The notes beneath the pieces are model-generated. The model ran no database searches. It had not been told where the DNA came from and saw only the letters and a list, made by a program, of their open reading frames with translations. 64,000 nucleotides of DNA. Origin: a virus. Positions 2,663-41,926 of this stretch are shown piece after piece. How positions within the stretch are numbered: the stretch's first letter is position 1; every line of letters begins with the position of its first letter. Both the position numbers and the translations under genes were made by a program. The stretch is taken from IMG/VR virus record IMGVR_UViG_3300007960_000015, positions 1-64,000 of that record. The stretch is one strand, 5' to 3'.

Positions 2663-2670
2663 ATACTAAT

Positions 2671-6094: not shown

Positions 6095-6109
6095 CGGAGT
6101 TAAATAAAA

Positions 6110-20311: not shown

Positions 20312-20321
20312 GGAGAATTAA

Positions 20322-21170
20322 ATGGGTTGGTCAGGATTTAGAAGTGGAATGTCGGATGGTCAGATTAGAACCCATACCGACGGCCGTAAATGGCAATGGA
20401 GTTCCTCAAATGGAAGATGGAATGTAGTAAGGAACACGACGACCACACTTGGTAACACAGGCCCAATGCCTGATCACCAATGGAATGGATACGAACTTAG
20501 ATTCGAGTCTGATACTGGTGTTTGGGGAAGTTATACCAATCTTCGTGGTGCCACTGGCCCCCAAGGACCTACATTTACAGGTGGAACAAATCAACAAGTT
20601 ACGGATGATGCTTATTTCCTTAGCGAAATATATTATAATAAATGGGCAAGAAATGATGGAACAGAAGGTTTATACTGGACCGCTCATGGCAATCATTTTC
20701 ATGCTATCAATTCACAAGACATCAGAGTAAGAACCGGCTCAGGTAACGGTGGATTACAATTTACTGTTTCTGATACTACTGCTAGAGGATATATACATGC
20801 TACTACGTCTAATGAAATTGGATTCTTAAATTCAAGTAGAAGTTGGTCCTTTAGATGTGATAATTCAGGAAATGTTACTGCAACATCTAATGTTACAGCT
20901 TATTCTGATAAGCGTCTAAAAGATAATATAAATACTATTGAGAACGGACTTGAGAAAGTAGAAGCCTTACGAGGCGTAACTTATACAAGGAAAGATAATG
21001 GTGAAGCAGGTATTGGTGTTATCGCCCAAGAGATCCAAGAGGTTTTACCTGAGTTAGTAAAAGATAATGGTGAAGCGTTATCTGTAGCCTATGGTAATAT
21101 TACGGGCGTACTTATTGAAGCTGTTAAGGAATTATCAGCACGTGTTAAAGAACTAGAAGATAATAAATAG
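20322..21170 (+). CDS. Fibre protein with C-terminal S74 intramolecular chaperone
   Basis: This 282-residue protein has an N-terminal domain (residues 1-80), a short collagen-like GATGPQGP stretch, and a beta shaft. The C-terminal peptidase S74 domain starts at AYSDKRLKDNI. The Ser-Lys pair of this family (S-D-x-R-L-K) is S195 and K200, and GIGVIAQEIQEVLPELV follows. S74 domains trimerise the fibre and then cut themselves off before the serine, so the mature product would be about 194 residues. It ends in a coiled coil (VKELSARVKELEDNK). AAGGAG precedes the start. Confidence 0.85.
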   Translation: MGWSGFRSGMSDGQIRTHTDGRKWQWSSSNGRWNVVRNTTTTLGNTGPMPDHQWNGYELRFESDTGVWGSYTNLRGATGPQGPTFTGGTNQQVTDDAYFLSEIYYNKWARNDGTEGLYWTAHGNHFHAINSQDIRVRTGSGNGGLQFTVSDTTARGYIHATTSNEIGFLNSSRSWSFRCDNSGNVTATSNVTAYSDKRLKDNINTIENGLEKVEALRGVTYTRKDNGEAGIGVIAQEIQEVLPELVKDNGEALSVAYGNITGVLIEAVKELSARVKELEDNK

Positions 21171-26016: not shown

Positions 26017-26964
26017 ATGGCAAAACAAAATATCAAGTGGGTAATTGCCCATGAGCCAATTGATTTGTTCTTGCGTGCTGCGAAGAAATTTTCAGACGAG
26101 ATCAATTCAAAAACTGATAAGTTCTCTTTCGAGTGTTTAACTCTTAAAGAATATTCAGACAAGTATAACGGTGGCGTACAAATCAATAAGTACGATCTTC
26201 TTGACCATATGGATCAAGGTAAAGTAGAAATGGCACAAATGTATACAACTACATTAGGTCAAAAGCACAATAGAGATATGTGGGCTTTGGATATGCCTTT
26301 CCTATTTAAAGATCATGATCACGCTGCTCGTGTTTTAGATGGTCAAATCGGTCAAAAGATTCTATCTGAAATGACTAATGAAGGCAATGTTAGAGGTCTA
26401 GCATTTACATATTCTGGTGGATTCAGAATGTTACCTTCTGATCGTGATATTAATGTATTGAGCGATCTTCAAGGTATGAGAGTTCGTGTACACGAGCATT
26501 CTCCAGTTGCTTCTGAAACATTTAAAGCTGTTGGTGCAGAGCCAGTTCAGTTAATGTTAGAGGAAATTAACGAGGGTGTTGCTAAAGATATGATTGACGC
26601 AGGTGAGTCTACTTACCCACGTTACTATTCTCTAAAGCAAAACGAAGCTCTTCCTACTATTAATGATACACAACATTCACTATTCTTAACTTCAGTTCTT
26701 ATCAATGATAATTTCTGGGCTGAGATGGATGCTGCGGACCAAGAAGTCATTCAATCAGCTGCTTTATCTGCTGCTGTAACTGAGCGTGCTGAATCAATCG
26801 CTGATATTAAGAAGGTTGAAGAAGTATGTGCTAAGGATGGTATCAACATTAATAAGATGAGCGAGTCTGTAACTGCAGAGTGGAAAGCTGCTACTGCACA
26901 CTTATATGACAAGTTCGAAGATATGTTCACACCAGGTCTTCTAAAAGCTATTCAAAAAGCTTAA
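26017..26964 (+). CDS. TRAP-transporter DctP-like solute-binding protein without signal peptide
   Basis: This 315-residue protein reads as the mature DctP/TAXI-type fold. Segments include FLRAAKKFSDEINSKT, a VEMAQMYTTTLG segment, DMPFLFKDHDHAARVLDG, and the hallmark LSDLQGMRVRVHEHS with the conserved Arg pair. Normal DctP proteins are exported and bind carboxylates for a DctQM permease. Here the fold begins at residue 5 with no export signal, and no DctQM is seen. It is alone between a late-like promoter and a terminator, with a strong ribosome site (AAGGAG). It could be cytoplasmic, virion-borne or a recruited binding domain. Confidence 0.8.
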   Translation: MAKQNIKWVIAHEPIDLFLRAAKKFSDEINSKTDKFSFECLTLKEYSDKYNGGVQINKYDLLDHMDQGKVEMAQMYTTTLGQKHNRDMWALDMPFLFKDHDHAARVLDGQIGQKILSEMTNEGNVRGLAFTYSGGFRMLPSDRDINVLSDLQGMRVRVHEHSPVASETFKAVGAEPVQLMLEEINEGVAKDMIDAGESTYPRYYSLKQNEALPTINDTQHSLFLTSVLINDNFWAEMDAADQEVIQSAALSAAVTERAESIADIKKVEEVCAKDGININKMSESVTAEWKAATAHLYDKFEDMFTPGLLKAIQKA

Positions 26965-27002: not shown

Positions 27003-27845
27003 ATGCCCACAATTGAAAAAAACTATATTAATATTAATGAGCTATCCACTGCTTTAAATTGGATGGTTGATCAATATTGGTATGTTAATATTAAACAAGA
27101 TAGAACTCAATGGAATAATGAGGAATCTATCTTATCTGATTCATTAATAACCCAATTAACACCCGATGGAAAGATGAGAGATCCGATGGTTATTGGTGCC
27201 CATGACCCAAGGCCACCTAGACCTAATGAAGTTTCTTCTATTAAAGGTGTTTGGAGAATGCCATTTGGATGGGATGATGAATCAACTAAAAGAAGATCAC
27301 CTATCATATACGATGTATTTGAAAATATTAATAAACAATTCTTTAATAATGAATTTACATTAGATGGTTATGGGGAAGGTATTAGAGCTACAAGATTAAT
27401 GTGGCAAAGTCCTAAACATAAAGATATACCTGGCTGGGGTAATTTTCTGAGGAGAGGCCATACTCCTCCGATTTGGACTTGTTATGCTAATGGAAGACCT
27501 AATGGTATGCATTGTCATGGTAATCTACCTGAACAAAAAAGTAATGCCCATATGGATAGTCCTGCTAATCCAGATCCTGACGCCTTGCCAGATAAAGATA
27601 CATATACTATATTAGTTAATTTAAATCCTGTGTGGAGACCCAATTCGGGTGGGGAAGTTATTTTCCATAAATTAGGAGATGATAATGGTGTGGGTTATGC
27701 TGAAGAAATTGTCCCACATGAACCTGGTTTAGTCTTGTTGTACTCATCTGACTATATACATAGAACTATACCAAATGTTGTTGCTAATAATAAAGAAAGG
27801 TTTCAACAGAAATTAGCATTTAGAGTAAGGAGAAAACATGATTGA
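27003..27845 (+). CDS. 2OG-Fe(II) dioxygenase-like protein 1
   Basis: In 280 residues the double-stranded beta-helix iron triad is visible: H183-x-D185 in NAHMDSP and H253 in DYIHRTIPNV. The 2-oxoglutarate-binding arginine is probably R274 in KLAFRVRRK. The GGEVIFHKLGDDN and PGLVLLYSS strands are typical of phage and prolyl-4-hydroxylase-like enzymes. Such enzymes hydroxylate proteins, sugars or small molecules using 2-oxoglutarate and O2. The target is unknown. It overlaps the next gene by eight bases. Confidence 0.75.
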   Translation: MPTIEKNYININELSTALNWMVDQYWYVNIKQDRTQWNNEESILSDSLITQLTPDGKMRDPMVIGAHDPRPPRPNEVSSIKGVWRMPFGWDDESTKRRSPIIYDVFENINKQFFNNEFTLDGYGEGIRATRLMWQSPKHKDIPGWGNFLRRGHTPPIWTCYANGRPNGMHCHGNLPEQKSNAHMDSPANPDPDALPDKDTYTILVNLNPVWRPNSGGEVIFHKLGDDNGVGYAEEIVPHEPGLVLLYSSDYIHRTIPNVVANNKERFQQKLAFRVRRKHD

Positions 27846-28950: not shown

Positions 28951-29685
28951 ATGATTGGTATTATTGGTTATGGTATGGTTGGCTCTGCCTTAAAAGAAGC
29001 CTTCTACAAAGAAACAATAGTTGTTGTAGATCCTAAATTTAATGATGTAACTATTAAAGATTTAGTTAATCGCAAACCCAAAGCAATATTTGTTTGTGTT
29101 CCTACTCCAACAGATAATTCAAACTACATTATAATAAGAAGTGTTCTGGATGAACTCAAACTCTTATATGATGGTTTGGTTATAGTAAAATCTACAATTC
29201 TTCCTGAAGTTCTTGAACCCTATGATGTTATATACAATCCTGAGTTTTTAAGTAGGGCTACAGCTAAAGACGATATGGTTAAACCTCCGATGGTAGTGAT
29301 TGGTGGTGATTCAGAAGAAAAATGTAACAAGTTGGCTGCATTATATGCGAAGCACTCTATTATTGATTTAAGTAATTTATTCTTTTGTACAGTAAGACAA
29401 GCTTGCTATATTAAATATATGATGAATACATTTTATGCAACGAAGATAACGTTTATGAATGAAATGTATGATATAATTAATTCAGCTGAAGATTTTGAGG
29501 TAGTAACTCAGGCTTGCGCAGCACATCCTTGGATGGGTACACATCATTTTCAAGTACCAGGTCCAGATGGAAAGCGTGGATTCGGTGGCCCTTGCCTTCC
29601 CAAGGATACTAAGGCATTAAATGATATGAATCCGGATTCTTTATTAGGAAAGGTATTGGAGTTAAACGAAACATATAGAAAATGA
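28951..29685 (+). CDS. UDP-glucose/GDP-mannose dehydrogenase-like protein, short form
   Basis: It has an N-terminal Rossmann motif (IGIIGYGMVGSAL, residues 2-14), FVCVPTPT, VIVKSTILPEV, YNPEFLSRATA, and the catalytic-cysteine motif FGGPCLPKD with C215. Family members oxidise the C6 alcohol of a nucleotide sugar twice to give a uronic acid. Usual length is about 390-440; this one stops at 244, soon after the cysteine, and lacks the C-terminal UDP-binding domain. The stop and next start overlap (ATGA). It could be a minimal enzyme or use a different sugar carrier. Confidence 0.8.
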   Translation: MIGIIGYGMVGSALKEAFYKETIVVVDPKFNDVTIKDLVNRKPKAIFVCVPTPTDNSNYIIIRSVLDELKLLYDGLVIVKSTILPEVLEPYDVIYNPEFLSRATAKDDMVKPPMVVIGGDSEEKCNKLAALYAKHSIIDLSNLFFCTVRQACYIKYMMNTFYATKITFMNEMYDIINSAEDFEVVTQACAAHPWMGTHHFQVPGPDGKRGFGGPCLPKDTKALNDMNPDSLLGKVLELNETYRK

Positions 29686-30689
29686 AAACATTATTAGTTG
29701 TAATGAGTGAACAATGCAATTTAAATTGTTCTTATTGCAATGTAGATAAATGGTCAAAGACAAAGATTGACGTTAATACCTTTATAGATTATTATAAAGA
29801 CCAAAGAAAGAAATATCCTGATGAGATGTTTAAGATTGATTTCTTTGGTGGTGAACCCCTCCTGCAGTTTGATGTTATGAAGGATATCGTGGCAAGAACA
29901 GAACACGATCCTTTAGTAAAATATTTTATGCCTACTAATGGATTGGTTATCACCCAGGAGAAATTAGACTTTATAATTGATAAGCAAATAGAAGTATCAT
30001 TATCATTTGATGGTTTATGGCAAGATGATAATAGACCACAATTAAGTGGAAGTGGTACATTAACTAAATACCTAGCCAAGAAAGATATATTAAAACAAAT
30101 TCCTAATCTTAGATGCCACTCTATGATAGGTTCTGGTAATCATAATTTATTAGAAAATCATTTGTTTATTGAAGATGTGTTTGGTGTTGCCTCTGAATTT
30201 ACATTAGTTAGAGACATTGGTATTTGGGATAAAGAAGGTGTTGAATCATTAAAGGAAGGTATAAAGGAATTAATGGAATGGTATTCTGTTAATACCCATA
30301 GAGAAATGCCTTTTTATATACGCTATTATTTAAGACATATGATAATGGCAAAGTATAAACAAGAAGAGGTTGATTCTTGTGGGGCTGGTGAATCTTTATT
30401 TACATTTAATGAAGATAATTCAGTAGTACCTTGTAATAGATTTAAAGATCAACCGGATGTTATTGCGAAGATACCTGAATTTAGAAAGATGTCCCCTTGT
30501 CAAACCTGCGAAGTAAGATCTTACTGCAGAAAGGGATGTTTATATGAGCAGATAAATAATAATGGACCTATTGAAGAATTGTGTGAGATATACAAATATA
30601 CCTATAAAAGTATTGGTCAGCTGGTAGCTAATGTACAGGATGATCCAAACTTCCAAGCCGTAGTGAAGGAGGAAATTGAAAATGGCTAG
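29682..30689 (+). CDS. Radical SAM/SPASM enzyme 1
   Basis: This 335-residue protein has the [4Fe-4S]-SAM motif C12-x3-C16-x2-C19 (EQCNLNCSYCN) and a GGEP SAM-binding motif (IDFFGGEPLLQ). A full SPASM region follows: CGAG near 233, VVPC near 251, then CQTCEVRSYCRKGC and a later Cys. SPASM enzymes hold auxiliary Fe-S clusters and usually modify peptides (thioether, formylglycine, C-C bonds). This gene is coupled to its neighbours and lies two genes before the cysteine-rich fibre protein. The peptide target is inferred. Confidence 0.85.
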   Translation: MKTLLVVMSEQCNLNCSYCNVDKWSKTKIDVNTFIDYYKDQRKKYPDEMFKIDFFGGEPLLQFDVMKDIVARTEHDPLVKYFMPTNGLVITQEKLDFIIDKQIEVSLSFDGLWQDDNRPQLSGSGTLTKYLAKKDILKQIPNLRCHSMIGSGNHNLLENHLFIEDVFGVASEFTLVRDIGIWDKEGVESLKEGIKELMEWYSVNTHREMPFYIRYYLRHMIMAKYKQEEVDSCGAGESLFTFNEDNSVVPCNRFKDQPDVIAKIPEFRKMSPCQTCEVRSYCRKGCLYEQINNNGPIEELCEIYKYTYKSIGQLVANVQDDPNFQAVVKEEIENG

Positions 30690-30900
30690 TATTAAACAAA
30701 TGAATAAGGCTTTATTTAAGTCTTCTGCTCATCTATTTGAAGCAGCAAAATATCTATCAAATGTAGAGGAATTTCGTGAAGAGGCGGTGATGCTTCTTGA
30801 AATGGCAGACGAAATGTCTAGTATTATCCAACCTGAAAAAGAGAAAGTATCAAAGGATAAAATGGCCGATATATTATCAGAGATTACAAAAAATGCATGA
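30682..30900 (+). CDS. 72-residue helical protein between the two SPASM enzymes
   Basis: The start at ATG 30682 is supported by AAGGAGGA eight bases upstream. The protein is almost entirely helical (MNKALFKSSAHLFEAAKYLS, then EEAVMLLEMADEMSSI) with no cysteines. It overlaps both flanking radical SAM genes by eight bases. It may be an accessory or docking subunit. It does not look like the winged-helix RRE of RiPP clusters or like a modified precursor. No family recognised. Confidence 0.6.
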   Translation: MASIKQMNKALFKSSAHLFEAAKYLSNVEEFREEAVMLLEMADEMSSIIQPEKEKVSKDKMADILSEITKNA

Positions 30901-32029
30901 AATAAGTAACCAATTTACGTTAGAAATTACCACAGCAGCTCTATGTAACTTAGACTGTACTTATTGCTTTGAAGGTGCAAAGACAAATAAGAGACGTTTA
31001 GATACAGAACAAGTAGCAGCCTTGAAAAAAAGAATCTATGATTTTTTAGATAGTGATTTCTTTAAAGATAATTACGACAATCTGAATATATCTTTTTGGG
31101 GTGGTGAACCCACTCTAAATCCTGATTTAATTATTAACATTATGCAAGAGTATCAGCATATAGACAATGTCGGTTTCCATATTTACACTAATGCTTATGA
31201 AAGAAGAAGATTAGATAAGATTGTAGATAATATTGATAAGAGTAAACTTAATGTACAGATATCATATGATGGCCGGGATATTAATGATGTGTTTAGAGTA
31301 ACTGCTACTGGTAAGTCATCTGCTGATAAAGTATTAGAGAATCTTGAATACTTTGCTAAGAAAGGTGTTGCTATTTCGATGAAATCGACTATACCTCTTA
31401 AATCAATGAGAACATTATATTCTACTTGGAAAGACTTTGAAAGAATGTATGAGAAGTATAATGCTATTGGTGATCATGTACAAATATCTTATGCCCCTAC
31501 TATTGACTATGTTGATGAATTACCTAGAGATGAAGCAGAAAAGCTTGTTGAAATATTCCGTGAGCAGATGATTAAAGTTGCTGCCGAAGAAATTAAATTT
31601 GTTAACAAACACCAAAGACATTTATGCACTTGGTTTAATGGTTCTGATTCCAAACAGCATTGTGCTGCTGGTGCACACATGCATGCTATTGATGTGGATG
31701 GTAATAGTTATGCTTGCCATGGTGCTTTATACTCTCCTAATAAAGAAAAGATGCACGGAGGTAATATTGAGGATGAAAACTTTATAAATAAGATTGAGAA
31801 GATGAGTAATGAATATTCATCAGTAATTGGCCGCGGAGTAAGCGACGTCTGTAAAGACTGTGTCGCTACAACGTGTATGATTTGCCCGGTAGCCTCATTC
31901 GATATGAGTAATAAAGAAGACCACATGGATAGGTGGACCGATAGATGGGTAAACAACATGTGCGGATTTTTTAAGGCGTTTGGAGAAATAGATAGAACAG
32001 TTCAAGCGCATTTAGACGGAGATTTATAA
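30893..32029 (+). CDS. Radical SAM/SPASM enzyme 2
   Basis: The start at ATG 30893 overlaps the previous stop (ATGCATGA); an in-frame upstream extension from 30797 only shadows the 72-residue gene. The cluster motif is C18-x3-C22-x2-C25 (ALCNLDCTYCFEGAK), with FWGGEPTLNP. The C-terminal SPASM region includes QHCAAGAHMHAIDVDGNSYA, then CH, then CKDCVATTCMICP and MCGFF. It is related to enzyme 1 and to anaerobic maturases. The stop overlaps the start of the cysteine-rich fibre (TAATG), so the two are made together. Confidence 0.85.
   Translation: MHEISNQFTLEITTAALCNLDCTYCFEGAKTNKRRLDTEQVAALKKRIYDFLDSDFFKDNYDNLNISFWGGEPTLNPDLIINIMQEYQHIDNVGFHIYTNAYERRRLDKIVDNIDKSKLNVQISYDGRDINDVFRVTATGKSSADKVLENLEYFAKKGVAISMKSTIPLKSMRTLYSTWKDFERMYEKYNAIGDHVQISYAPTIDYVDELPRDEAEKLVEIFREQMIKVAAEEIKFVNKHQRHLCTWFNGSDSKQHCAAGAHMHAIDVDGNSYACHGALYSPNKEKMHGGNIEDENFINKIEKMSNEYSSVIGRGVSDVCKDCVATTCMICPVASFDMSNKEDHMDRWTDRWVNNMCGFFKAFGEIDRTVQAHLDGDL
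31783..31790 (+). promoter_or_regulatory. Intragenic TATAAATA upstream of the cysteine-rich fibre gene
   Basis: This is an exact octamer within radical SAM enzyme 2, about 240 bases before 32029. It could give extra late transcription of the virion protein, or be chance. Confidence 0.25.
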
Positions 32030-32748
32030 TGGCATGTTCAGGAAGTCATTGCAGTAATCATGGAACTGGTACTTCTACTTGTTCCAACCATAGAGGTACT
32101 TGCTCTACTAACAGGGCTTATAGCCCCTCTAGTGAGTTCACTGGAGGTTCAATTACAGCAGCAGATATCAATCTACTAAGAACTAATATTAGAGATGAGA
32201 TAACACGTTATAATCTTCATGCGGATCATTCTCACACACTACGCCAGGGCTCTGCTTATCAAACATCAACTGTAATAGATAATGCTCATATTAATGATAT
32301 GGAGCAAATGGTATATGATGGTGAGAATAGAAAAGAAAGAGTTGGATCTAACTATGCATCTGTAGCTGGTGCTACTACCTGGGGTAATAAATCTATATCT
32401 TCATATTCGGAAGGTTCTGTAATTAATGCATCACACTGGACAACACTTAAATCAAGATACGATAATCTAAGAACAGATTGTATATGTAATTCGGATTGTT
32501 CATGTAATCTAGTTTGTGCTTGTCATAATGACTGTGGTTGTAACTACTCTGATATTAGATTAAAGAGAGAGATTCAATTCCTTGAAAAACGTGGTGATAT
32601 TAATTATTATTCATTTAAGTATATTTGGGATAATGTTAGAAGAACTGGTGTTATGGCACAAGAGATTCTTGAATCTAAGTGGAAAGATGCTGTGAAACAA
32701 GATAAGAAAGGTTATTATATGGTAGACTATTCAATGCTGCCTCAATAA
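32029..32748 (+). CDS. Cysteine-rich fibre protein with CxC repeats and S74-type C-terminal chaperone
   Basis: This is a 239-residue protein. The N-terminus has Cys 3, 8, 18 and 25 among S, H, N and G. Residues 35-150 are a helical/beta fibre body. Residues 151-171 hold eight cysteines in exact C-x-C-x3 period: 151, 153, 157, 159, 163, 165, 169 and 171. Directly after, NYSDIRLKREI matches the S74 start with S174 and K179 as the Ser-Lys pair, followed by TGVMAQEIL. Self-cleavage before S174 would leave the cysteine repeats at the very tip of the mature fibre. Two SPASM enzymes lie directly upstream. Confidence 0.75.
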   Translation: MACSGSHCSNHGTGTSTCSNHRGTCSTNRAYSPSSEFTGGSITAADINLLRTNIRDEITRYNLHADHSHTLRQGSAYQTSTVIDNAHINDMEQMVYDGENRKERVGSNYASVAGATTWGNKSISSYSEGSVINASHWTTLKSRYDNLRTDCICNSDCSCNLVCACHNDCGCNYSDIRLKREIQFLEKRGDINYYSFKYIWDNVRRTGVMAQEILESKWKDAVKQDKKGYYMVDYSMLPQ

Positions 32749-32764
32749 AAAAAGGAGTTATATT

Positions 32765-33376
32765 ATGATGCTTTATGAACTCGCGTTGGTCGAAGACCGC
32801 GGATCCTATTGGTTTGTTACAAACGTAACAAGAAACACCCTAGACAATTTAGCAGAGGAAGGAGAAACAGTCCTTAAACTTTCTGCTAACTCATTTAAAA
32901 TTATTAGTGATGCTATCAATGATGGTAAGGCTGTACATATTACAAAAACACGTATGGCTAGTGAAGTACTACCAATGGAGATTGAGGTACTAGATCATAG
33001 TGAGACTGATCCATTAGATGAAGCTAGAAAGGCAGCTCTTATTAAGGTTAGAATGTTAGTTACGCCTGAGTTAGCTAAAATATCGGGTTTCGCATTATAT
33101 GGATTTATGATGCTTAATAATGATCTGGCTAATGCAGGATTCTTTATTACTAACGATAATAGGGAAGAGAAGTATCTCTCTATTCTTGAAACAGGTAATG
33201 AAGATTTAATTGAGAAGTTAGAAGATTATTTAAATTATAAAGACGAGATTGAAAATGTAGCTCATCTAGAAAGAAAGTTTTCTAAATTCAAAAAAGATCT
33301 TAGAATTGCAACCACTGTAGAGGATGTACAAGGAATCCAAGATAGATTCCTAGATAAATTCTATTCAAATTTCTAA
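32765..33376 (+). CDS. Unknown 203-residue protein after the cysteine-rich fibre
   Basis: AAAAAAAGGAG precedes the start; ATG at 32765 or 32768 is possible. The N-terminal part (1-80) is beta-rich and the C-terminal part a charged helical bundle (LEDYLNYKDEIENVAHLERK, KFKKDLRIATTVEDVQGIQD). No cysteines or catalytic motif. It may be an assembly factor for the fibre; no family recognised. It ends in TAATG shared with the next gene. Confidence 0.5.
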   Translation: MMLYELALVEDRGSYWFVTNVTRNTLDNLAEEGETVLKLSANSFKIISDAINDGKAVHITKTRMASEVLPMEIEVLDHSETDPLDEARKAALIKVRMLVTPELAKISGFALYGFMMLNNDLANAGFFITNDNREEKYLSILETGNEDLIEKLEDYLNYKDEIENVAHLERKFSKFKKDLRIATTVEDVQGIQDRFLDKFYSNF

Positions 33377-34170: not shown

Positions 34171-35036
34171 TAAAATTAGAAAATAAAGATCTTTGGCTTA
34201 CCTATTCATGGAGTAATAATAACCATGGAATATGTGGACATACCTATGAAGTTATTGATTATTGGTATATCTTAAAAGATAAAATGAATGTGGGTATTGT
34301 CTTATGTGAAGACATTGACTCAGATACATTATTTAAAGCTGTGAGGTGTAGATATAACTTTAATACTTTAGAGATATCGGAATTAGAAAACTCAGTTGTA
34401 TTTCATAATAGACCAAAGATACTTACTGGAGGCTCTAAAATATTATTTACAGATGGTGGTATTGTAAATATGAGTAATGTCACATTATTATATGATAAGA
34501 TATATTATATGGCTTGTGGTAATAAACAGGTAAAAGATAATAATAAAGATAATGTGTATATTCTACAAGATGATAGAGTATATGAGAGAGTTAAAAAGAA
34601 TGGAATACATTATGTTAAGAAGATTCTATTTGATAAGTTAAAGAAGCCAAGAGGGCAGTTAAATAATACTTTGGTTTATGGAACTAAGAATTGCAGACAT
34701 ATTGAAGATTATAGTGATTTACATCAATATGGCAATCTTTTAATTGTAACTAATAAAGAGAATAAACCTAAGGGATTGGTATCACTCCAGCCTCCAGTGC
34801 CTGATATATTCAGATTATTTAAGACATATGTGTATACACCAGTAGCTAGGAAATGGGATTGTTCTCCAAGATTTTTAGCAGAATGTGTATACTTCAATAA
34901 AGAAGTTATCTTTCATAATATAGATTATTGGGAAGAGGATCACGGATTAAGAGTTAGATGGGACGATATCCAAAATAATTTTGAGAGTTTATATCTTAAA
35001 GAAGATGATCCAATAATAGAGATTTTAAATGATTAG
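34158..35036 (+). CDS. Possible glycosyltransferase (GT-B-like)
   Basis: In this 292-residue protein the C-terminal part reads TYVYTPVARKWDCSPRFLAE, followed by CVYFNKEVIFHNIDYWEEDHGL. This resembles the region of phage and bacterial GT-B enzymes that selects the donor sugar. The N-terminal part starts TYSWSNNNHGICGHTYEVID and carries HNRPKILTGGSKILFTDGG. It overlaps both neighbours. It could add a sugar to host glycan or to a virion protein. Confidence 0.45.
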   Translation: MSAIVKLENKDLWLTYSWSNNNHGICGHTYEVIDYWYILKDKMNVGIVLCEDIDSDTLFKAVRCRYNFNTLEISELENSVVFHNRPKILTGGSKILFTDGGIVNMSNVTLLYDKIYYMACGNKQVKDNNKDNVYILQDDRVYERVKKNGIHYVKKILFDKLKKPRGQLNNTLVYGTKNCRHIEDYSDLHQYGNLLIVTNKENKPKGLVSLQPPVPDIFRLFKTYVYTPVARKWDCSPRFLAECVYFNKEVIFHNIDYWEEDHGLRVRWDDIQNNFESLYLKEDDPIIEILND

Positions 35037-35862
35037 CATTGAGATTATCGAAGGCTGTAATTTTAAGTGTTACTTTTGTGCGGCCAAAGATATTGACAAA
35101 TATAAGTTTATGGATATTGATGTCTTTAAGAAAGCTGTGCTTGAGGCGAGGGAACTAGGTATTAAGACAGTTGATATGATTCCTTCCAGAGGTGATCCAT
35201 TTCTTCATCCGCACATTTATGAGATGTTAGACTTCATAAATGAGCATATGGAAGAGATTTTAATATTTACTAATGCTACTCCTGTTAATGTAGCTAAGCT
35301 AAGTCAGTGTAATCTATCCCACACTATATTATCCATCTCTCTTTATGGAAAGACAACAGAAAAATTTATTGAGTTAACAAAGACAGATGAGAGAATGTTT
35401 AATAAATTTAATAAAAAGCTGAGGGAACTAGATGAGGCTGGTATAAAATATAACATAGAGAGAAGGGATGAGGACTATGAATTCGATACTCATGGAGTAG
35501 CAAAAAACGATTTTGATGCGTCTCAGAAGTGTAAATTTCATCATATACCGAAGATTCTTGTGGATGGTAGTGTAACATTCTGCCGTACTGCCTGGAGTAG
35601 TAATGGTCTTTCTATTGGTAATCTATCTAACAAAGACCTACATGATATGTTATCAGATCCTATAAGATATAAGTTTATGGACTCCCAAAGTATATGTGAA
35701 CATGCATGTGATTCATATGAGATTAATTGTAACACAAAGACAACATTCGCTGCTATAAAACTGATGAGTGAAAGCAGAGCTAGATACTTAAGTAGTCATG
35801 TTGATACTGAAATTAGATATAAGAAATTAGAAAATGAGACTATACAACGAACTGAGTCATAG
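35029..35862 (+). CDS. Radical SAM enzyme 3
   Basis: This 277-residue protein has C10-x3-C14-x2-C17 (EGCNFKCYFCAA). The GGE motif is replaced by SRGDPFLHP. The C-terminal region holds further cysteines (QKCKFHH; VDGSVTFCR; SICEHACDSYEINC) that could bind an auxiliary cluster, and a typical SPASM-type GNLSNKDLHDMLSD segment. Peptide or sugar chemistry is possible. It is coupled to the upstream glycosyltransferase-like gene and overlaps the next radical SAM gene by 29 bases. Confidence 0.8.
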   Translation: MISIEIIEGCNFKCYFCAAKDIDKYKFMDIDVFKKAVLEARELGIKTVDMIPSRGDPFLHPHIYEMLDFINEHMEEILIFTNATPVNVAKLSQCNLSHTILSISLYGKTTEKFIELTKTDERMFNKFNKKLRELDEAGIKYNIERRDEDYEFDTHGVAKNDFDASQKCKFHHIPKILVDGSVTFCRTAWSSNGLSIGNLSNKDLHDMLSDPIRYKFMDSQSICEHACDSYEINCNTKTTFAAIKLMSESRARYLSSHVDTEIRYKKLENETIQRTES

Positions 35863-36841
35863 AGAAATTGAAATAGATTATGATACTCCATATTGTAATC
35901 GTGGTAAATTAGATACAGGAACTCACTGTAACTATCGCTGTGGCTTTTGTTATTACTATAATCAGTTAGACCAGAAGACTCCCTTTAAGGAAGTTAAAAA
36001 AAGAATAGATCATTTGGTTGAATGTGGTATTGCTGAAGCAGATTTATCTGGTGGTGAGAGCTCTATACATGCAGACTGGTTTAATATCCTGGATTACTGT
36101 AAAGAAAAAGGATTGAAAGTTTCTTGTCTCTCAAATGGATCAATGTTTTCTAAGTATGAATTTTTAGAGAAATCAAAGCAGCATGGATTAGATGAGATAC
36201 TTTTTTCTTTACATGGCTTTGATGAAGAAAGTCATAATAAATTAGTTGGTGTTAAGGCCGGCTTCAGAAAGATAACTCAATCAATAGTGTTTGCAAATCA
36301 GTTAGGTATTAAGGTAAGACTTAATTGTACTGTAACAAAAGACAATTATAAGGAACTAGATAACAAGTTTGTTGATCTTGTCCATCAGTTTGATGTAGCA
36401 CAAGTTAATTTTCTAACTCTAAACTATTGGGACGATGCAAATGCACAGGATGCATTCCCATATAAGGAAGCAACAGAGTCAATAAAAAGAGCTATTGATA
36501 AGTTAGAAGTACCAGACAAAAGAGTACGTTATACTCCCTTCTGCTATCTTAAGGGTTACGAAAAACACCTCTTCGGGTATTATCAACATATCTATGACCT
36601 CTCTGATTGGAATATCGCTACCTATGGACATACTATTGATCCGAGAGAGTATGTCGGTAACGAGTTAAAGCATTTATATTTAGCTGCTGAGAGGCAGAGA
36701 AACGCAACTTATAAGAAAAATAAAGAGTGCCTGGATTGTAAACATTATTATATCTGTGATGGATATGAAAAGAAACATGGTGAACTGGAAGTGTTTCCAG
36801 AGCCTGGGGAAAAGATTAAGAAGGTAACACATTACTTATGA
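35834..36841 (+). CDS. Radical SAM enzyme 4
   Basis: This 335-residue protein has C32-x3-C36-x2-C39 (THCNYRCGFCYYYN) and LSGGESSIH in the GGE position. SLHGFDEESHNKLVGV and the NCTVTK strand are typical of MoaA/SPASM-like barrels. Near the end ECLDCKHYYICDGYE gives three cysteines for a possible extra cluster. The N-terminal 30 residues before the cluster motif are longer than in the neighbouring copies. It is followed by an SDR reductase with an ATGA overlap. Confidence 0.8.
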   Translation: MRLYNELSHREIEIDYDTPYCNRGKLDTGTHCNYRCGFCYYYNQLDQKTPFKEVKKRIDHLVECGIAEADLSGGESSIHADWFNILDYCKEKGLKVSCLSNGSMFSKYEFLEKSKQHGLDEILFSLHGFDEESHNKLVGVKAGFRKITQSIVFANQLGIKVRLNCTVTKDNYKELDNKFVDLVHQFDVAQVNFLTLNYWDDANAQDAFPYKEATESIKRAIDKLEVPDKRVRYTPFCYLKGYEKHLFGYYQHIYDLSDWNIATYGHTIDPREYVGNELKHLYLAAERQRNATYKKNKECLDCKHYYICDGYEKKHGELEVFPEPGEKIKKVTHYL

Positions 36842-37479
36842 ATATTCTAGTTATTGGTGGTGGCGAATATGGAAAGTTCGGCAACGACTTTGTAATAAAG
36901 GCAAGAGAAGATGGACATAGAGTCCTTGTCTTATCTCATAGAAGAAGAGCAGATGATCCAGATCAGGTTATTGCTAACTTCACATCAACAAATGATATTA
37001 TAGAGAAGGTAAATTTTTTATGTAAATTAGTTGACCAAATCGATATTATGTTGTATAATACATCTGCCGATGGGGAGCCCAGGGTGCCTATAGCCTATAC
37101 GAGTGGTGGTGTTATTAATGAGAGTCTTTATCTGTTTAACTTCAGACTTCATGCTGTTATTCCTCATGTAATTGCTAATACTGTAATGGAATATATGAGG
37201 GGCGGAAAGATGATCTTTATTACTACCGACATGATTCATGATAGAGAAAGAAGTAAGTATCTTGAGAATGTTGGTTATTGTGGCGGTAAGGCATTCCAGC
37301 ATCAGTTAATGTTAGCGTTAGCTGAATATAATGATAGGAACTTAACTGTATCTTCTATCTCTCCTTTCTTTGATTATAATAATAAAGAGTGTTATAAGTC
37401 AGTATTTGATGCCGCATACAATTATATTTTTGATCATGGAGAAGAGATGAATGGAAAGATATTCGAGTGTTTTGATTAA
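36838..37479 (+). CDS. Short-chain dehydrogenase/reductase (SDR)
   Basis: This 213-residue protein has a Rossmann start (MNILVIGGGEYGKFGNDFV). KMIFITTD is the serine-bearing strand position. The catalytic Y-x3-K is Y147-CGG-K151. It is slightly shorter than the usual 240-250. It would reduce or oxidise a keto or hydroxyl group with NAD(P), probably on a sugar given the context. It lies between radical SAM genes. Confidence 0.7.
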   Translation: MNILVIGGGEYGKFGNDFVIKAREDGHRVLVLSHRRRADDPDQVIANFTSTNDIIEKVNFLCKLVDQIDIMLYNTSADGEPRVPIAYTSGGVINESLYLFNFRLHAVIPHVIANTVMEYMRGGKMIFITTDMIHDRERSKYLENVGYCGGKAFQHQLMLALAEYNDRNLTVSSISPFFDYNNKECYKSVFDAAYNYIFDHGEEMNGKIFECFD

Positions 37480-38114
37480 TGCATGATGATTACTACCTTG
37501 GTGGATATGATGATGAAGGAACATACACCTTATATGTTACCTATAAGTGTAACTGGAGATGTGACTATTGCTCAGAAGATACATGGAATAGACCGAGGGT
37601 TAATAACCTGCAGGAGAAACTTGACGCCATTGTAGAAGGATCGGATGTATCAATTACTGGTGGAGAGCCAGGTATCCTTCCTAAGGATATAATGGAAGAT
37701 GTCATTAGGCAACTGAAAGAAAAGAAATGTATAATAAATGTCAATACAAATGGAACATTTTTTAAGAGGTTTAAGTATCTTGATGAACAGGTAGATAGTT
37801 ATCTCTATCATTGTTCAGAGCAATTAGAGGATGAAGAGATTATTATCCCTGACATTGATCAGAATAAGATACAATACATGTTAGTCATTACAGATGACAA
37901 TATGGATAGGTTAGAATATTATGTAAGTAAGTATCCTAATATAAACTTTTTAGTGTTTGGAGCTGATAATGTTATTGGTAAAGGACTATCAAGGAAGAAT
38001 GGTTTTGAGATATCAAGAAAGTACAGGGGAAGGATAGATGATGATTCACATATACATTTGATTACAACCTGCTGGGAAGTAAATCAGATGAGGAATCTAA
38101 GAGCATTACGATGA
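37479..38114 (+). CDS. Mini radical SAM protein 5 (tandem family A, copy 1)
   Basis: This 211-residue protein has C24-x3-C28-x2-C31 (YKCNWRCDYCSEDTWNRP) and SITGGEPG. It is homologous to the next two genes: all have C-x-W-x-C-x-Y-C, a D-x-x-N-x-P motif, TGGEPG/SGGEPG, NGLF/NGTF-x-K-R/KF and a Y/YHC(S/V)E motif. The length is short for a radical SAM barrel and there is no SPASM domain. The substrate is unknown. This copy has a longer N-terminus than the other two. Confidence 0.8.
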   Translation: MHDDYYLGGYDDEGTYTLYVTYKCNWRCDYCSEDTWNRPRVNNLQEKLDAIVEGSDVSITGGEPGILPKDIMEDVIRQLKEKKCIINVNTNGTFFKRFKYLDEQVDSYLYHCSEQLEDEEIIIPDIDQNKIQYMLVITDDNMDRLEYYVSKYPNINFLVFGADNVIGKGLSRKNGFEISRKYRGRIDDDSHIHLITTCWEVNQMRNLRALR

Positions 38115-38683
38115 AGGAAGTAGAATTATCATTAACTAATAAGTGTCAATGGCACTGTGATTATTGTGTAGCTGATATACATAATCAACCTCTTCGTAAA
38201 TATAAAGATGTATTAGAAGATGCGAGGAATATATTACCTAAAACAGAAGTAACTTTTTCTGGTGGTGAGCCTGGCCTTCTTAAAAGAGAACAGATTAAGG
38301 AGTTAATTTCTATACTGGAAGAAAAAAACTGTCCGATAGATCTATTAACTAACGGACTTTTCATAAAGAGATTTCCTGATTTATTAAAACATTTTGGAAA
38401 GGTTCATTATCATTGTGTAGAATATATCGGAGATGACATTGAATTTCCTAATAGAGATGATGTAATATATTGTGTTGTGGTTGAAGATAAGAACTTATTA
38501 GACGGAAGTTTAATTAAGATGATTAATAGATATCCTCATATTAAATTTTTAACTTTATTTGACGTAAGGAACCAACACAAGATTAATCTTAATAATATGA
38601 AGAAGTTTGTTAATGAATATAAAGATAAGATACATCCTACGGCTTTAGATGAATTCATTACTGTAGTGAGTAGGTGGCATTGA
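38111..38683 (+). CDS. Mini radical SAM protein 6 (tandem family A, copy 2)
   Basis: This 190-residue protein has C12-x3-C16-x2-C19 (NKCQWHCDYCVADIHNQP), FSGGEPGLLKREQIKEL, NGLFIKRFPDL and VHYHCVEY. It starts within the ATGA overlap of copy 1 and ends in a TGATG overlap with copy 3. No auxiliary-cluster cysteines. It is the most compact of the ten and barely long enough for a partial barrel, so dimerisation or partner subunits are plausible. Confidence 0.8.
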   Translation: MKEVELSLTNKCQWHCDYCVADIHNQPLRKYKDVLEDARNILPKTEVTFSGGEPGLLKREQIKELISILEEKNCPIDLLTNGLFIKRFPDLLKHFGKVHYHCVEYIGDDIEFPNRDDVIYCVVVEDKNLLDGSLIKMINRYPHIKFLTLFDVRNQHKINLNNMKKFVNEYKDKIHPTALDEFITVVSRWH

Positions 38684-39288
38684 TGGCTATACAAGCGAAA
38701 GAAAAAGAAATTGAATTAGTTATTACTTGGACTTGTCAATGGCATTGTGAATATTGTTGTGTAGATACTCATAACAGGCCTAAATTATCTTTTGATGAAG
38801 TTAAAAAGAAATTAGATAAAATTATACCCGGATATAATGTGACATTATCTGGCGGTGAACCTGGTGCTCTAAAAAGAGAGCAATTAGAATTTTTATTAGA
38901 TGAGCTTGAGAAGAGAGGATGTGAACCTTCTATCAATACTAATGGTTTATTCTTAAAGAAGTATCCAGATCTTATTGATAGATTCGCCACGATATTGTAT
39001 CATTGTAGTGAAGATATTAATTTGGATGATCCATTGTTAATAGGTGATTATGAATATCTATTAATAGTAACCGATAATAACTTTGAAAGGCTAGGACCAT
39101 TTTTAGACAAGTATCCGGATATACAATTTAATTTAGTAGCTGCTACCAATCCGAAGGGAATATACGGTGTTACTTTATCTATTGAAAACAAACATAAAAT
39201 GTTAAAACTATACCATAATAGAATGACTAAAGAATCTATTAAGAGAGTATTTAAAGAGAAAGATTTTGATGCAATCACCTATCTATAA
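38683..39288 (+). CDS. Mini radical SAM protein 7 (tandem family A, copy 3)
   Basis: I start it at ATG 38683, which overlaps the previous stop (TGATG), rather than at the in-frame GTG at 38674. In 201 residues it has C18-x3-C22-x2-C25 (WTCQWHCEYCCVDTHNRP), LSGGEPGALKREQLEFLLDE, NGLFLKKYPDL and LYHCSED. An extra Cys26 follows the cluster motif. It is closest to copy 2. The 3' end overlaps the next radical SAM gene by 20 bases. Confidence 0.8.
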   Translation: MAIQAKEKEIELVITWTCQWHCEYCCVDTHNRPKLSFDEVKKKLDKIIPGYNVTLSGGEPGALKREQLEFLLDELEKRGCEPSINTNGLFLKKYPDLIDRFATILYHCSEDINLDDPLLIGDYEYLLIVTDNNFERLGPFLDKYPDIQFNLVAATNPKGIYGVTLSIENKHKMLKLYHNRMTKESIKRVFKEKDFDAITYL

Positions 39289-40153
39289 AGAACAAAATAA
39301 AGAAGACATAATCAGGATTGAATTAGAATTAACTTCTCTTTGCAATCTTAAATGTCCCTTATGTGTAAGAGAAACATTTCCGGTTGCCAAATATGATACA
39401 AGAGGGTATAATAGTATTATTGAGCAATTAAATGAGTATTCGAATCTTAAATTTGTAACTATAGCCGGTGCGATAAGTGAACCTACTAGTCATCCCGATC
39501 TATTTAAAATAATACAGTATCTTAATGATAGAGATATTGAAATTTCATTATACATTAACGGTGATACTAAAACAGATTTATATTACTCTAAATTAGGATT
39601 AATATTTAGGGGATGTAAGGGCCATGTCTATTTCACTATTGCTGGATCAACACAAGAACTCCATGAGAGATATAGAGTAGGATCAGATAGACAAAGGGTA
39701 TTAAGGCGTTTAGATTTAGTTAACAAATATTCTGGTAATAAAGGCATATTAACGTGGTTGGTATTTAATTATAATCAGGAGGATTTTGAACAGAACTATC
39801 AATATTATAAAGACAGATATAATACTGAGTTCTTTCATACTCTTCCTTTCCAAGAACATTTTAATTGGGATATAGATATACACCTACCTAAAAAAGAACA
39901 TGAATTGTATATAACTCAGATTAATAGAAATGTATATCCAACAACTTGCGTATCTAATCAAAATAACTTTGTACAGATATTACATGATGGGGAGGTAACT
40001 CCCTGTTCTTTATATAGACTCCATGGTGAAAAACATTGTTGGGAGTGCCATAAAGAAAACCTGGATATGTTAAGAAAGAATAAGATTTATAATATAGCAG
40101 AGAGTGAAACTGAGACCTCTGAAATACCATTAAGGTTGTATTATGATTGTTAG
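39269..40153 (+). CDS. Radical SAM enzyme 8 (tandem family B, copy 1)
   Basis: The start is ATG 39269. In 294 residues it has C25-x3-C29-x2-C32 (SLCNLKCPLCVRE). The GGE position reads AGAISEPTSHPD, shared in form by copies 2 and 3. It also shares NGDTKT and FTIAGSTQELHERYRVGS with them. C-terminal cysteines (TTCVSNQ; GEVTPCSLYR; HCWECH) suggest an auxiliary cluster of SPASM or twitch type. Substrate unknown. It overlaps copy 2 by 11 bases. Confidence 0.8.
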   Translation: MQSPIYKEQNKEDIIRIELELTSLCNLKCPLCVRETFPVAKYDTRGYNSIIEQLNEYSNLKFVTIAGAISEPTSHPDLFKIIQYLNDRDIEISLYINGDTKTDLYYSKLGLIFRGCKGHVYFTIAGSTQELHERYRVGSDRQRVLRRLDLVNKYSGNKGILTWLVFNYNQEDFEQNYQYYKDRYNTEFFHTLPFQEHFNWDIDIHLPKKEHELYITQINRNVYPTTCVSNQNNFVQILHDGEVTPCSLYRLHGEKHCWECHKENLDMLRKNKIYNIAESETETSEIPLRLYYDC

Positions 40154-41054
40154 TAAAGCGGATATTGAAGAAATAGAAATGGATTTGGTGGGGATGTGTA
40201 ATCTATCGTGTCCTCTGTGTACTAGAAATTATGTTCATGCAGAACATATGCTATCTAAAAATGTACGCCATATTGATGAGATAATTAAACAATTAGATCA
40301 ATATCCCAACTTACAAAGGTTCTTTGTTGCTGGCGCTGTATCTGAACCTACTATGTACAAATACTTCGATGAATTTATTGATTATTTAAATAGCAGAGAC
40401 ATATATTATGAAATATTCACTAATGGTAATACAAGAAGTGAAGATTGGTGGTATCAATTAGGACAGAAGGTTCCTTCAAAATGTTTTACAGCATTTACTA
40501 TATGTGGAAGCAATCAAGAAATGCATGAGAAATATAGAGTAGGTTCTTCATTAGATGAAATCCTAAGGCATGCCAGGGCTTATAGAAAGGCCGGAAAGAA
40601 TAATGATATGATACAAACTATTAGATTTGATTATAATAAAGAAGATTTAGAGTCATCTCAAATGAAAGAACTTATTGATGAGTTCTCTCTTCATCTTCCT
40701 GTTGATACTGAAGGAATAAGAAGGCGTAATGAATATCAAGAAGATGTAGCAGATGGTGTACAGCCCATTGAGATTAGAGATCAACTTATTAAACAATTAT
40801 TTGCGAGAAGACCTAAACCAGATGATGGAAAGGAATATACTATACAATGTAACTCCATAAAGAATAAAAAAATATACATTAATCAATATGGACAGGTAGC
40901 TGCTTGTTATATCCACGCAGAGAATGAACAGGATTATTTTGACGATGTAATGGATTATGGTGATATTTTAGAATTTAAATACCCGGATTGTTTTGTATGT
41001 GAAAAACAAACGAGAACATTTATTGAAAAAATGGGATTAGAATTTATATGTTAA
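40143..41054 (+). CDS. Radical SAM enzyme 9 (tandem family B, copy 2)
   Basis: This 303-residue protein has C19-x3-C23-x2-C26 (GMCNLSCPLCTRN), AGAVSEPTMYKYFDE, NGNTRSEDWW and FTICGSNQEMHEKYRVGSS. The C-terminal part has IQCNSIKNKKIYINQYGQVA, then ACYIH and DCFVCEKQ, the auxiliary-cluster pattern. It contains an extra segment at about residues 190-235 compared with copy 1. It is packed by overlaps with both neighbours. Confidence 0.8.
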   Translation: MIVSKADIEEIEMDLVGMCNLSCPLCTRNYVHAEHMLSKNVRHIDEIIKQLDQYPNLQRFFVAGAVSEPTMYKYFDEFIDYLNSRDIYYEIFTNGNTRSEDWWYQLGQKVPSKCFTAFTICGSNQEMHEKYRVGSSLDEILRHARAYRKAGKNNDMIQTIRFDYNKEDLESSQMKELIDEFSLHLPVDTEGIRRRNEYQEDVADGVQPIEIRDQLIKQLFARRPKPDDGKEYTIQCNSIKNKKIYINQYGQVAACYIHAENEQDYFDDVMDYGDILEFKYPDCFVCEKQTRTFIEKMGLEFIC

Positions 41055-41926
41055 TTGAAGAAATTGAAATTGAATTAACCTCTATATGTAATGCGAAATG
41101 CCAATTGTGTTATAGGAATTATAAAAGTTATAAGCCCACTAAAATCATTAGACCTATTGATGATGTTATATCTCAATTGGATAGTTATAAGTCACTTAAA
41201 CGCATTAAATTAGTAGGAGTAGAATCGGAGCCTACTATCCATCCTGAGTTTCTTAAATTGATTACTTGGCTAAAATCAGAGGATATTCATATTGAAATAT
41301 GTACTAACGGCGATACTAAAACACCTGCCTTTTGGAGAAAATTGGGTATACTATTAGATAAGGACGATGAAGTTTATTTTACTATATGTGGAAGTACTCA
41401 AGAGCTACATCAAAGATATAGAAGAAATACCAGATTAGATAAAATACTTAGGAATGCGGCTGCTATGAGGGAAGCAGGAAAGCCGACCGATTATGCACAA
41501 TGTATTAGATTCTCATATAATGACGAGGACTTTAATAGTAAGAAATTTCAGGATATGGTATCTGTATTCTCCAACGTCTATTGGACTGAAACCTATCTCC
41601 ATAAAGATTTAAATAATTATGTTGATATTGAAGGGATGGAATATTTAACCCCACCTATACAAAAGCAAGATAGTTATTATAAGGTAGAATTATTAGCTGA
41701 TGCTTTATATAAAGCAGATGGATTTAAAGAGACATTATGTATGGCTGAAGAAAGTAAGTCGATTCAGATAGATGTTCATGGTAATCTATATCCGTGTTAT
41801 CTTCATAAAGAAGCTGATATTCCGTGGACGGGTGAGTATGGAAGTGGAGAGATTGAAACATGCAAGTTTTGTATTAAAGGCGTTAGACAATTATGTCATG
41901 ATAAACAATTGGAGTATGTAATATGA
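41048..41926 (+). CDS. Radical SAM enzyme 10 (tandem family B, copy 3)
   Basis: This 292-residue protein has C14-x3-C18-x2-C21 (SICNAKCQLCYRNYK), VGVESEPTIHPEFL, NGDTKTPAFWRKLG and FTICGSTQELHQRYRRNT. C-terminal ETLCMAEESKSIQIDVHGNL, PCYLH and CKFCIKG carry the cysteines of a likely auxiliary cluster. It is clearly descended from the same ancestor as copies 1 and 2. It is followed, in an ATGA overlap, by a nucleotide-sugar dehydratase. Confidence 0.8.
   Translation: MLIEEIEIELTSICNAKCQLCYRNYKSYKPTKIIRPIDDVISQLDSYKSLKRIKLVGVESEPTIHPEFLKLITWLKSEDIHIEICTNGDTKTPAFWRKLGILLDKDDEVYFTICGSTQELHQRYRRNTRLDKILRNAAAMREAGKPTDYAQCIRFSYNDEDFNSKKFQDMVSVFSNVYWTETYLHKDLNNYVDIEGMEYLTPPIQKQDSYYKVELLADALYKADGFKETLCMAEESKSIQIDVHGNLYPCYLHKEADIPWTGEYGSGEIETCKFCIKGVRQLCHDKQLEYVI

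What the first reader, a model, noticed from the sequence alone, without database searches (positions are those of the whole stretch)
29682..32748. Two SPASM radical SAM enzymes coupled to a cysteine-repeat fibre protein: a candidate RiPP-like fibre-modification system
Seen: two adjacent radical SAM genes with full SPASM cysteine sets, a 72-residue helical protein between them, and then, sharing TAATG with the second enzyme, a protein with eight Cys in exact C-x-C-x3 period. Known: SPASM enzymes usually modify cysteines or neighbouring residues of peptides encoded next to them. Inferred: the phage modifies its own fibre tip, for example by thioether cross-links, which would stiffen it or create a new binding chemistry. 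I know of no described phage fibre matured by radical SAM enzymes.
Basis: partly seen in the sequence, partly recalled or inferred. Interest (0 to 1): 0.93.

Follow-up and report, generated by a model that had tools for sequence, protein, structure and literature searches.

The report
Radical-SAM-matured cysteine-repeat phage fibre
This phage carries two radical (SPASM) enzymes of the kind that cross-link cysteines in small bacterial peptides, but here they sit beside, and very probably act on, a cysteine-repeat protein of the virus's own fibre; the same pairing recurs across many unrelated-looking phages, so it looks like an undescribed way for viruses to chemically harden or decorate a structural protein.

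Summary
UGD, rSAM1, a 72-aa protein, rSAM2 and a CxC-repeat protein with an S74 chaperone tail are all there. Both enzymes have the CxxxCxxC site and all seven SPASM cysteines, and eight Cys lie in perfect C-x-C-x3 period. Twelve IMG/VR relatives of the CxC protein all have both enzymes directly upstream. A separate pattern scan for CxCN(S/T)DCxCN gave 12 genuine contigs, all with rSAM2. A CNCNYCTC scan gave 37 of 43 contigs with the enzyme, the six misses being short fragments. S74-fibre contigs without CxC gave 0 of 27. Starting from the enzyme, 71 of 80 loci carry a Cys-rich ORF, against 1 of 741 control ORFs. The partners belong to unlike repeat families, yet 80% of 857 CxC motifs are followed by Asn/Asp. 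S74-less homologues stop where S74 self-cleavage would leave the tip. Nearest solved structure: the thioether maturase CteB. Best reading: the SPASM pair cross-links Cys to Asn/Asp at the C-terminal tip of a virion fibre. Enzyme-substrate coupling is strongly supported; bond chemistry and virion location are inferred. New variant of a known kind.

The parts
28951..29685 (+). UDP-glucose/GDP-mannose dehydrogenase-like protein (244 aa); overlaps the rSAM1 start; neighbour of uncertain role
   Evidence: Pfam PF00984 5e-14, PF03721 9e-11; in the same place in most relatives; a UDP-glucose dehydrogenase also lies near rSAM gp023 in Campylobacter phage CP220
29682..30689 (+). rSAM1: radical SAM/SPASM enzyme, no N-terminal RRE domain
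   Evidence: PF04055 1e-9; NCBIfam PapB 8e-32 at 111 bits, cutoff 340; PDB 5wgg CteB 8e-33; CxxxCxxC and 7 SPASM Cys invariant
30682..30900 (+). 72-aa three-helix protein, no Cys; candidate partner or scaffold of the enzymes
   Evidence: 15 homologues between rSAM1 and rSAM2; AlphaFold pLDDT 90, helices 4-25, 29-48, 58-71; no PDB match at E<=0.001
30893..32029 (+). rSAM2: radical SAM/SPASM enzyme directly before the CxC protein
   Evidence: PF04055 4e-12; PapB model 9e-31 at 107 bits; PDB 5wgg CteB 1e-18; CxxxCxxC and 7 SPASM Cys invariant
32029..32748 (+). CxC-repeat fibre-like protein with S74 chaperone tail (239 aa, 12 Cys): proposed substrate
   Evidence: relatives
32035..32103 (+). N-terminal Cys/His cluster (Cys 3, 8, 18, 25), possible second modification or metal site
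   Evidence: conserved in most but not all homologues
32479..32547 (+). CxC block CICNSDCSCNLVCACHNDCGCNY (residues 151-173): four C-x-C-x3 units, each CxC followed by N or H
32548..32745 (+). S74 intramolecular chaperone (SDIRLK..GVMAQE..), predicted to cut itself off before Ser174, leaving CxC as the mature C-terminus
   Evidence: PF13884 24.3 bits vs cutoff 22; phrog_6121 4e-12; S74-less homologues end at CNY
32765..33376 (+). 203-aa protein of unknown role, syntenic after the CxC protein in the relatives
   Evidence: phrog_25260 9e-15

Best explanation
A virus-encoded RiPP-like maturation system whose substrate is a structural (fibre) protein. Steps: (1) the CxC/S74 protein is made from a gene translationally coupled to rSAM2 [shown at sequence level]; (2) the SPASM pair, perhaps with the 72-aa three-helix protein in place of the missing RRE domain, acts on its Cys blocks [the coupling is strongly supported by co-occurrence; the reaction itself is inferred]; (3) the likely reaction is a 2-electron oxidation that links Cys sulfur to the Asn/Asp following the CxC unit, a ranthionine-like thioether repeated along the block [inferred]; (4) S74 drives trimer folding and cuts itself off before Ser174, leaving the modified CxC segment as the C-terminal tip [inferred]; (5) the result is a rigid, protease- and redox-proof tip or adhesin [inferred].
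For: Co-occurrence from three independent starts: 12/12 CxC homologues have rSAM1, the 72-aa gene (or a small ORF in its place) and rSAM2 upstream; 12/12 genuine CxCN(S/T)DCxCN contigs have rSAM2; 37/43 CNCNYCTC contigs have it, misses all 24.4 kb or shorter, vs 0/27 S74 contigs without CxC. Reverse direction: 71/80 rSAM2-like loci have a Cys-rich ORF; Cys-rich rate 18.7% at distance 1 falling below 1% at 6 or more ORFs, 1/741 in control loci. Unlike repeat families share CxC followed by N/D: 80% of 857, 67% without the CNYCT family vs 18% after shuffling and 31% in ordinary ORFs. Repeat type follows the enzyme tree, 9 changes vs 16 or more in 500 shuffles. Nearest structures/models are thioether makers CteB and PapB; PapB joins Cys to a downstream Asp/Glu at spacings 0-6 (PMC9413430). 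S74 present; S74-less homologues end at CNY; tail and baseplate genes upstream.
Against: No chemical or virion data. Both enzymes score far below the PapB cut-off (about 110 vs 340 bits) and lack an N-terminal RRE. The window repeat is not CX3D; Cys171-Asp175 is the only CX3D in the block. In CP220 the CxC protein and rSAM gp136 are separated by three genes. The 11 CP220 virion bands sequenced in PMC2853527 do not include it. AlphaFold leaves residues 153-170 unordered. Many contigs are related, so counts are not independent events; enzyme-substrate tree agreement also follows from inheritance of one locus.
Confidence: 0.62

Rival explanations
1. The SPASM enzymes modify the CxC protein, but not by Cys-Asn/Asp thioethers: for example sactionine (alpha-carbon) links, epimerisation, or modification of Asn/Asp with the Cys only positioning it or binding metal.
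For: SPASM enzymes do many reactions; NCBIfam hits include sulfatase and other maturases; the N/D positions after CxC could themselves be the target.
Against: The top structure and family matches are thioether makers, and targets are extremely Cys-rich across unlike families.
Confidence: 0.2
2. The Cys blocks are metal-binding or disulfide lattices of a fibre and are not enzymatically modified; the rSAM genes act on other things and merely share the operon.
For: CxC and CxxH are classic metal ligands; many other rSAM genes nearby clearly serve something else.
Against: Near-absolute co-occurrence with SPASM rSAMs in unlike Cys-repeat families, 0/27 in S74 controls, and the shared N/D after CxC.
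Confidence: 0.1
3. The product is a released or injected RiPP-like effector (bacteriocin-like) rather than a fibre part; S74 is only a folding aid.
For: Some relatives have no S74; jumbo phages carry short leader-plus-Cys-repeat ORFs that look like classic RiPP precursors.
Against: S74 is typical of trimeric fibres; the window locus follows baseplate and tail-fibre genes; proteins are 160-300 aa with predicted helical domains.
Confidence: 0.12

Closest known systems
PapA/PapB ranthipeptide system (NCBIfam NF047865)
   Same: SPASM radical SAM enzyme next to a Cys-rich target; best family-model match of both enzymes (8e-32, 9e-31); PapB joins Cys to a downstream Asp/Glu at spacing 0-6 (PMC9413430)
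   Different: Score about a third of the curated cut-off; no RRE domain; two enzymes plus a 72-aa helper; CxCN/D repeat instead of CX3D; target is a 239-aa S74 fibre-like protein in a virus
CteB, SCIFF maturase (PDB 5wgg)
   Same: Nearest solved structure of both enzymes (8e-33, 1e-18); thioether former (identity of 5wgg as CteB is from memory)
   Different: CteB's first ~97 residues (RRE region) have no counterpart; target is a short SCIFF peptide
CXXX-repeat radical SAM system (TIGR04115 maturase / TIGR04114 target)
   Same: Same principle of periodic-Cys target plus SPASM enzyme; Erwinia jumbo phage gp162 reaches the TIGR04114 cut-off
   Different: Window enzymes score 58-62 bits vs cut-off 350; the window CxC protein does not hit TIGR04114
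Firehammervirus (Campylobacter phage CP220 group) gp140/gp136/gp023
   Same: Closest isolated phages: rSAM2-like gp136 (30% id) and rSAM1-like gp023; gp140 has CDCNYCT repeats and 35 Cys
   Different: gp140 is not recognisably homologous over its body, has no S74, and three genes lie between it and gp136; function not assigned in the papers read
Peptidase S74 fibres (PF13884)
   Same: C-terminal chaperone with SDxRLK start
   Different: Ordinary S74 phages lack the CxC block and the SPASM enzymes (0/27)

Membership tests
Radical SAM/SPASM enzymes | CxxxCxxC cluster site | tested here: met
   Invariant in 7-member alignments of each enzyme; PF04055 above cut-off
Radical SAM/SPASM enzymes | Seven C-terminal SPASM cysteines | tested here: met
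   All seven invariant in both; note Pfam PF13186 itself not hit
PapB ranthipeptide maturase (NF047865) | Curated score cut-off 340 bits | tested here: not met
   110.8 and 107.3 bits
PapB ranthipeptide maturase (NF047865) | N-terminal RRE domain | tested here: not met
   Enzymes start at the rSAM core; CteB residues before about 98 have no match
PapB ranthipeptide maturase (NF047865) | CX3D/E repeats in an adjacent Cys-rich target | tested here: not met
   Adjacent Cys-rich target yes, but the repeat is CxC followed by N/D/H; single CX3D at Cys171-Asp175
PapB ranthipeptide maturase (NF047865) | Cys-to-beta/gamma-carbon thioether product | not testable with these tools
   Needs MS/MS
CXXX-repeat system TIGR04114/TIGR04115 | Curated model scores | tested here: not met
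   Enzymes 58.2 and 61.9 vs 350; target no hit. Met at threshold (20 vs 20) only by jumbo-phage gp162
RiPP pathway (general) | Modifying enzyme encoded with its ribosomal substrate | tested here: met
   Genes overlap by one base; neighbourhood kept in the relatives
RiPP pathway (general) | Leader recognition and removal | not tested
   No leader identified; helical domain or 72-aa protein may serve; S74 would remove a C-terminal part instead
Peptidase S74 fibre | PF13884 above gathering score, SD.RLK start | tested here: met
   24.3 vs 22 bits; S174 D175 R177 K179. That Ser and Lys are the catalytic pair is from memory
Peptidase S74 fibre | Self-cleavage and trimer | not testable with these tools
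   Indirect only: S74-less homologues end at the same point

The most novel reading that the evidence does not exclude
Phages as a group have evolved radical-SAM maturation of their own structural proteins: several repeat families (CxCNSD, CNCNYCT, CxCxxRT, CSCNSDCADGC, CSxx), most sharing a CxC-N/D code, are each converted into a polycyclic thioether-like tip by dedicated SPASM enzymes.
Probability: 0.5. Interest if true: 0.93.

Novelty: new variant of a known kind. Interest (0 to 1): 0.86.

Why it matters
Radical SAM genes in phages have been read as auxiliary metabolism or DNA protection (PMC2853527, PMC3322345, PMC5332604). If a large share instead matures a virion protein, it explains why these genes lie in tail or host-recognition regions, adds a chemistry not described for viral structural proteins in the library searched, links it to isolated phages (Campylobacter CP220 group, Salmonella SPN3US group) where it can be tested at once, and offers a large new set of thioether-type maturases and very long repeat substrates.

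Tried and rejected
Direct tblastn of the CxC protein in 50,697 phage records: no match; the CxC-S74 tail there matches only other S74 fibres weakly. PDB search with the CxC alignment: nothing. Foldseek of the CxC model (pLDDT 69) and of the 72-aa model: no significant match; the RRE idea for the 72-aa protein was dropped because the model is a plain three-helix bundle. A programmed -1 frameshift in relatives with a split S74 was considered; the downstream frames seem to carry their own start and ribosome-site-like sequences, so a split gene is the simpler reading. Prokaryote genomes: the CNCNYCTC pattern gave 11 stretches of which only two are real Cys-repeat ORFs, both with an A2-like enzyme on the same stretch, so the repeat is essentially viral. 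Two contigs of the CxCNSD scan without enzyme show no Cys-repeat ORF at the match and look like chance hits. IBB_35 virion proteomics table: the supplement could not be opened. Literature: no paper found linking phage radical SAM enzymes to a virion protein; the library lacks most subscription journals and preprints.
Full report
What is in the window. The window is part of a 79.5 kb virus record. It begins in baseplate and tail genes (baseplate wedge subunits at 3072-7432, tail-fibre-like genes at 17450-21170) and runs into a long array of radical SAM and sugar-type genes. The reported segment is exact: UGD-like 28951-29685, rSAM1 29682-30689, 72-aa ORF 30682-30900, rSAM2 30893-32029, CxC/S74 protein 32029-32748, all overlapping. 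The CxC protein has 12 Cys: four near the N-terminus and eight in C-x-C-x3 period at residues 151-171, directly before the S74 domain (PF13884, 24.3 bits vs cut-off 22).

The enzymes. Both have CxxxCxxC and seven C-terminal Cys that are invariant from the window to Campylobacter phage CP220. Their best NCBIfam model is the PapB ranthipeptide maturase (8e-32 and 9e-31) but at about 110 bits against a cut-off of 340. Their nearest solved structure is 5wgg, the SCIFF thioether maturase CteB (8e-33 and 1e-18). The first ~97 residues of CteB, where an RRE would be, have no counterpart. The 72-aa protein lies between the enzymes in 15 loci and is predicted as a three-helix bundle (pLDDT 90) without PDB relatives; a partner role is a guess.

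From the CxC alignment, 12 IMG/VR loci encode relatives and all 12 have rSAM1, a small ORF and rSAM2 directly upstream, mostly with the same genes downstream. A DNA pattern for C-hydrophobic-C-N-S/T-D-C-x-C-N found 14 contigs; the 12 with a real CxC protein all have rSAM2 at 1e-97 or better, the other two look like chance matches. A pattern for CNCNYCTC, a different repeat, found 43 contigs, of which 37 have an rSAM2-like enzyme and the six without are fragments of 4.1-24.4 kb. As control, contigs with an S74 fibre chosen by a pattern without CxC gave 0 of 27 (23.7-328 kb). In prokaryote genomes the CNCNYCTC pattern is nearly absent; the two real cases again share the stretch with the enzyme. 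Related contigs inflate these counts, so they are not independent events.

The reverse direction. Of the 80 best viral loci for rSAM2, 71 carry a Cys-rich ORF. Around A2/A3-type enzymes the Cys-rich rate is 18.7% for the next ORF, 11.4% at two, below 1% at six or more; in S74 control loci 1 of 741. The partners are not one family: besides the window type there are CNCNYCT, CxCxxRT, CSCNSDCADGC, YACSCNATC and CDGDxC repeats of up to 88 Cys; the members I scanned are unknown to NCBIfam and Pfam. Over 94 representatives with 857 CxC motifs the next residue is Asn in 59% and Asp in 21%. Leaving out the CNYCT family it is 67%, against 18% after shuffling within proteins and 31% in ordinary ORFs. 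Repeat type follows the enzyme tree with 9 changes against 16 or more in 500 shuffles; this also follows from shared inheritance of the locus.

How it likely works. Unlike repeats tied to the same enzymes, with a common CxC-N/D code, point to the repeats as the substrate. PapB links Cys to a downstream Asp/Glu at spacings from zero to six residues (PMC9413430), so a Cys-to-Asn/Asp thioether is the most economical guess; it is not shown. The CxC block is the best-conserved part of an otherwise divergent protein. S74 homologues are known, from memory, to cut themselves off before the Ser of SDxRLK. Five homologues without S74 (L004, L005, L015, L022, L024) end in CNY, CNYA, CNYS, CNYTQ or CNYTA, i.e. 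where the cut would fall. That supports the modified block being the free C-terminal tip of the mature fibre. AlphaFold gives three helices and a fairly confident S74 but leaves residues 153-170 unordered, which would fit a segment that only folds when trimeric or modified.

Links to isolated phages. The closest cultured relatives are Firehammerviruses: gp136 (30% to rSAM2) and gp023 (rSAM1), with gp140 carrying six CDCNYCT-type units, three genes between it and gp136. The 2010 paper counted 11-12 radical SAM proteins there as unusual and judged one five-gene module of them likely non-essential metabolism (PMC2853527); its 11 sequenced virion bands do not include gp140. Jumbo phages SPN3US, EarlPhillipIV and phiEaH2 have short Cys-repeat ORFs, mostly unannotated or read in the wrong frame, beside two rSAM genes, and EarlPhillipIV gp162 reaches the cut-off of TIGR04114, the curated CXXX radical-SAM target repeat. 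In pelagimyophages, radical SAM cassettes were noted inside the host-recognition cluster (PMC7029224).

Verdict. Observation confirmed; system-level interpretation well supported; chemistry and virion location inferred. It works like a ranthipeptide/CXXX system, but it is not a member of those curated families (scores and RRE tested and not met). New variant of a known kind, applied to a viral fibre protein, for which I found no description in the searchable literature.

Noticed in passing
L028 9615, L031 7681, L032 9787, L034 9821, L043 10154, L044 9696, L055 9588: In relatives the CxC protein ends 'SDxRLKxxIxY[IM]*' and the rest of S74 continues in another frame immediately after, apparently with its own start: a split S74 chaperone (or a frameshift) at one fixed point.
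   Followed up: partly
L341 (SPN3US) ~2085-3120; L175 1155-1541 and ~1502-1950; L176 ~1090-2143: Unannotated or wrong-frame ORFs of about 120-130 aa with about 20 Cys (leader-like start plus C-S/G-x-x repeat) directly upstream of paired radical SAM genes in Salmonella and Erwinia jumbo phages; SPN3US_0166 is annotated in the wrong frame over one.
   Followed up: partly
window 35029-41926: Eight further radical SAM-type genes, several of them tandem paralogues (37479/38111/38674 and 39266/40143/41048), followed by nucleotide-sugar epimerase genes; largely syntenic in close relatives, reminiscent of CP220's metabolic rSAM cassettes.
   Followed up: partly
window 26017-26964: TRAP-transporter solute-binding protein (DctP, PF03480 3e-46) encoded by a phage, starting without an obvious signal peptide.
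   Followed up: no
window 27003-27845: 2OG-Fe(II) oxygenase-like protein (PF13640 5.5e-4, below cut-off), another possible protein-modifying enzyme close to the fibre genes.
   Followed up: no
L001 3574-4959: ORF that by eye looks like 5-aminolevulinate synthase, next to the rSAM operon in a relative; not tested.
   Followed up: no
CP220 gp140, L008 9028-9153: Six 21-bp units encode the CDCNYCT repeats; the homologue in phage vB_CjeM_WX1 is 42 bp shorter, i.e. about two units, so the repeat number may vary between strains.
   Followed up: no
L007 22830-23201 (CP220): 123-aa protein with 27 Cys in CxNC/CxDC-like repeats in the same phage, not adjacent to a SPASM gene; possibly a second Cys-repeat target.
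   Followed up: no
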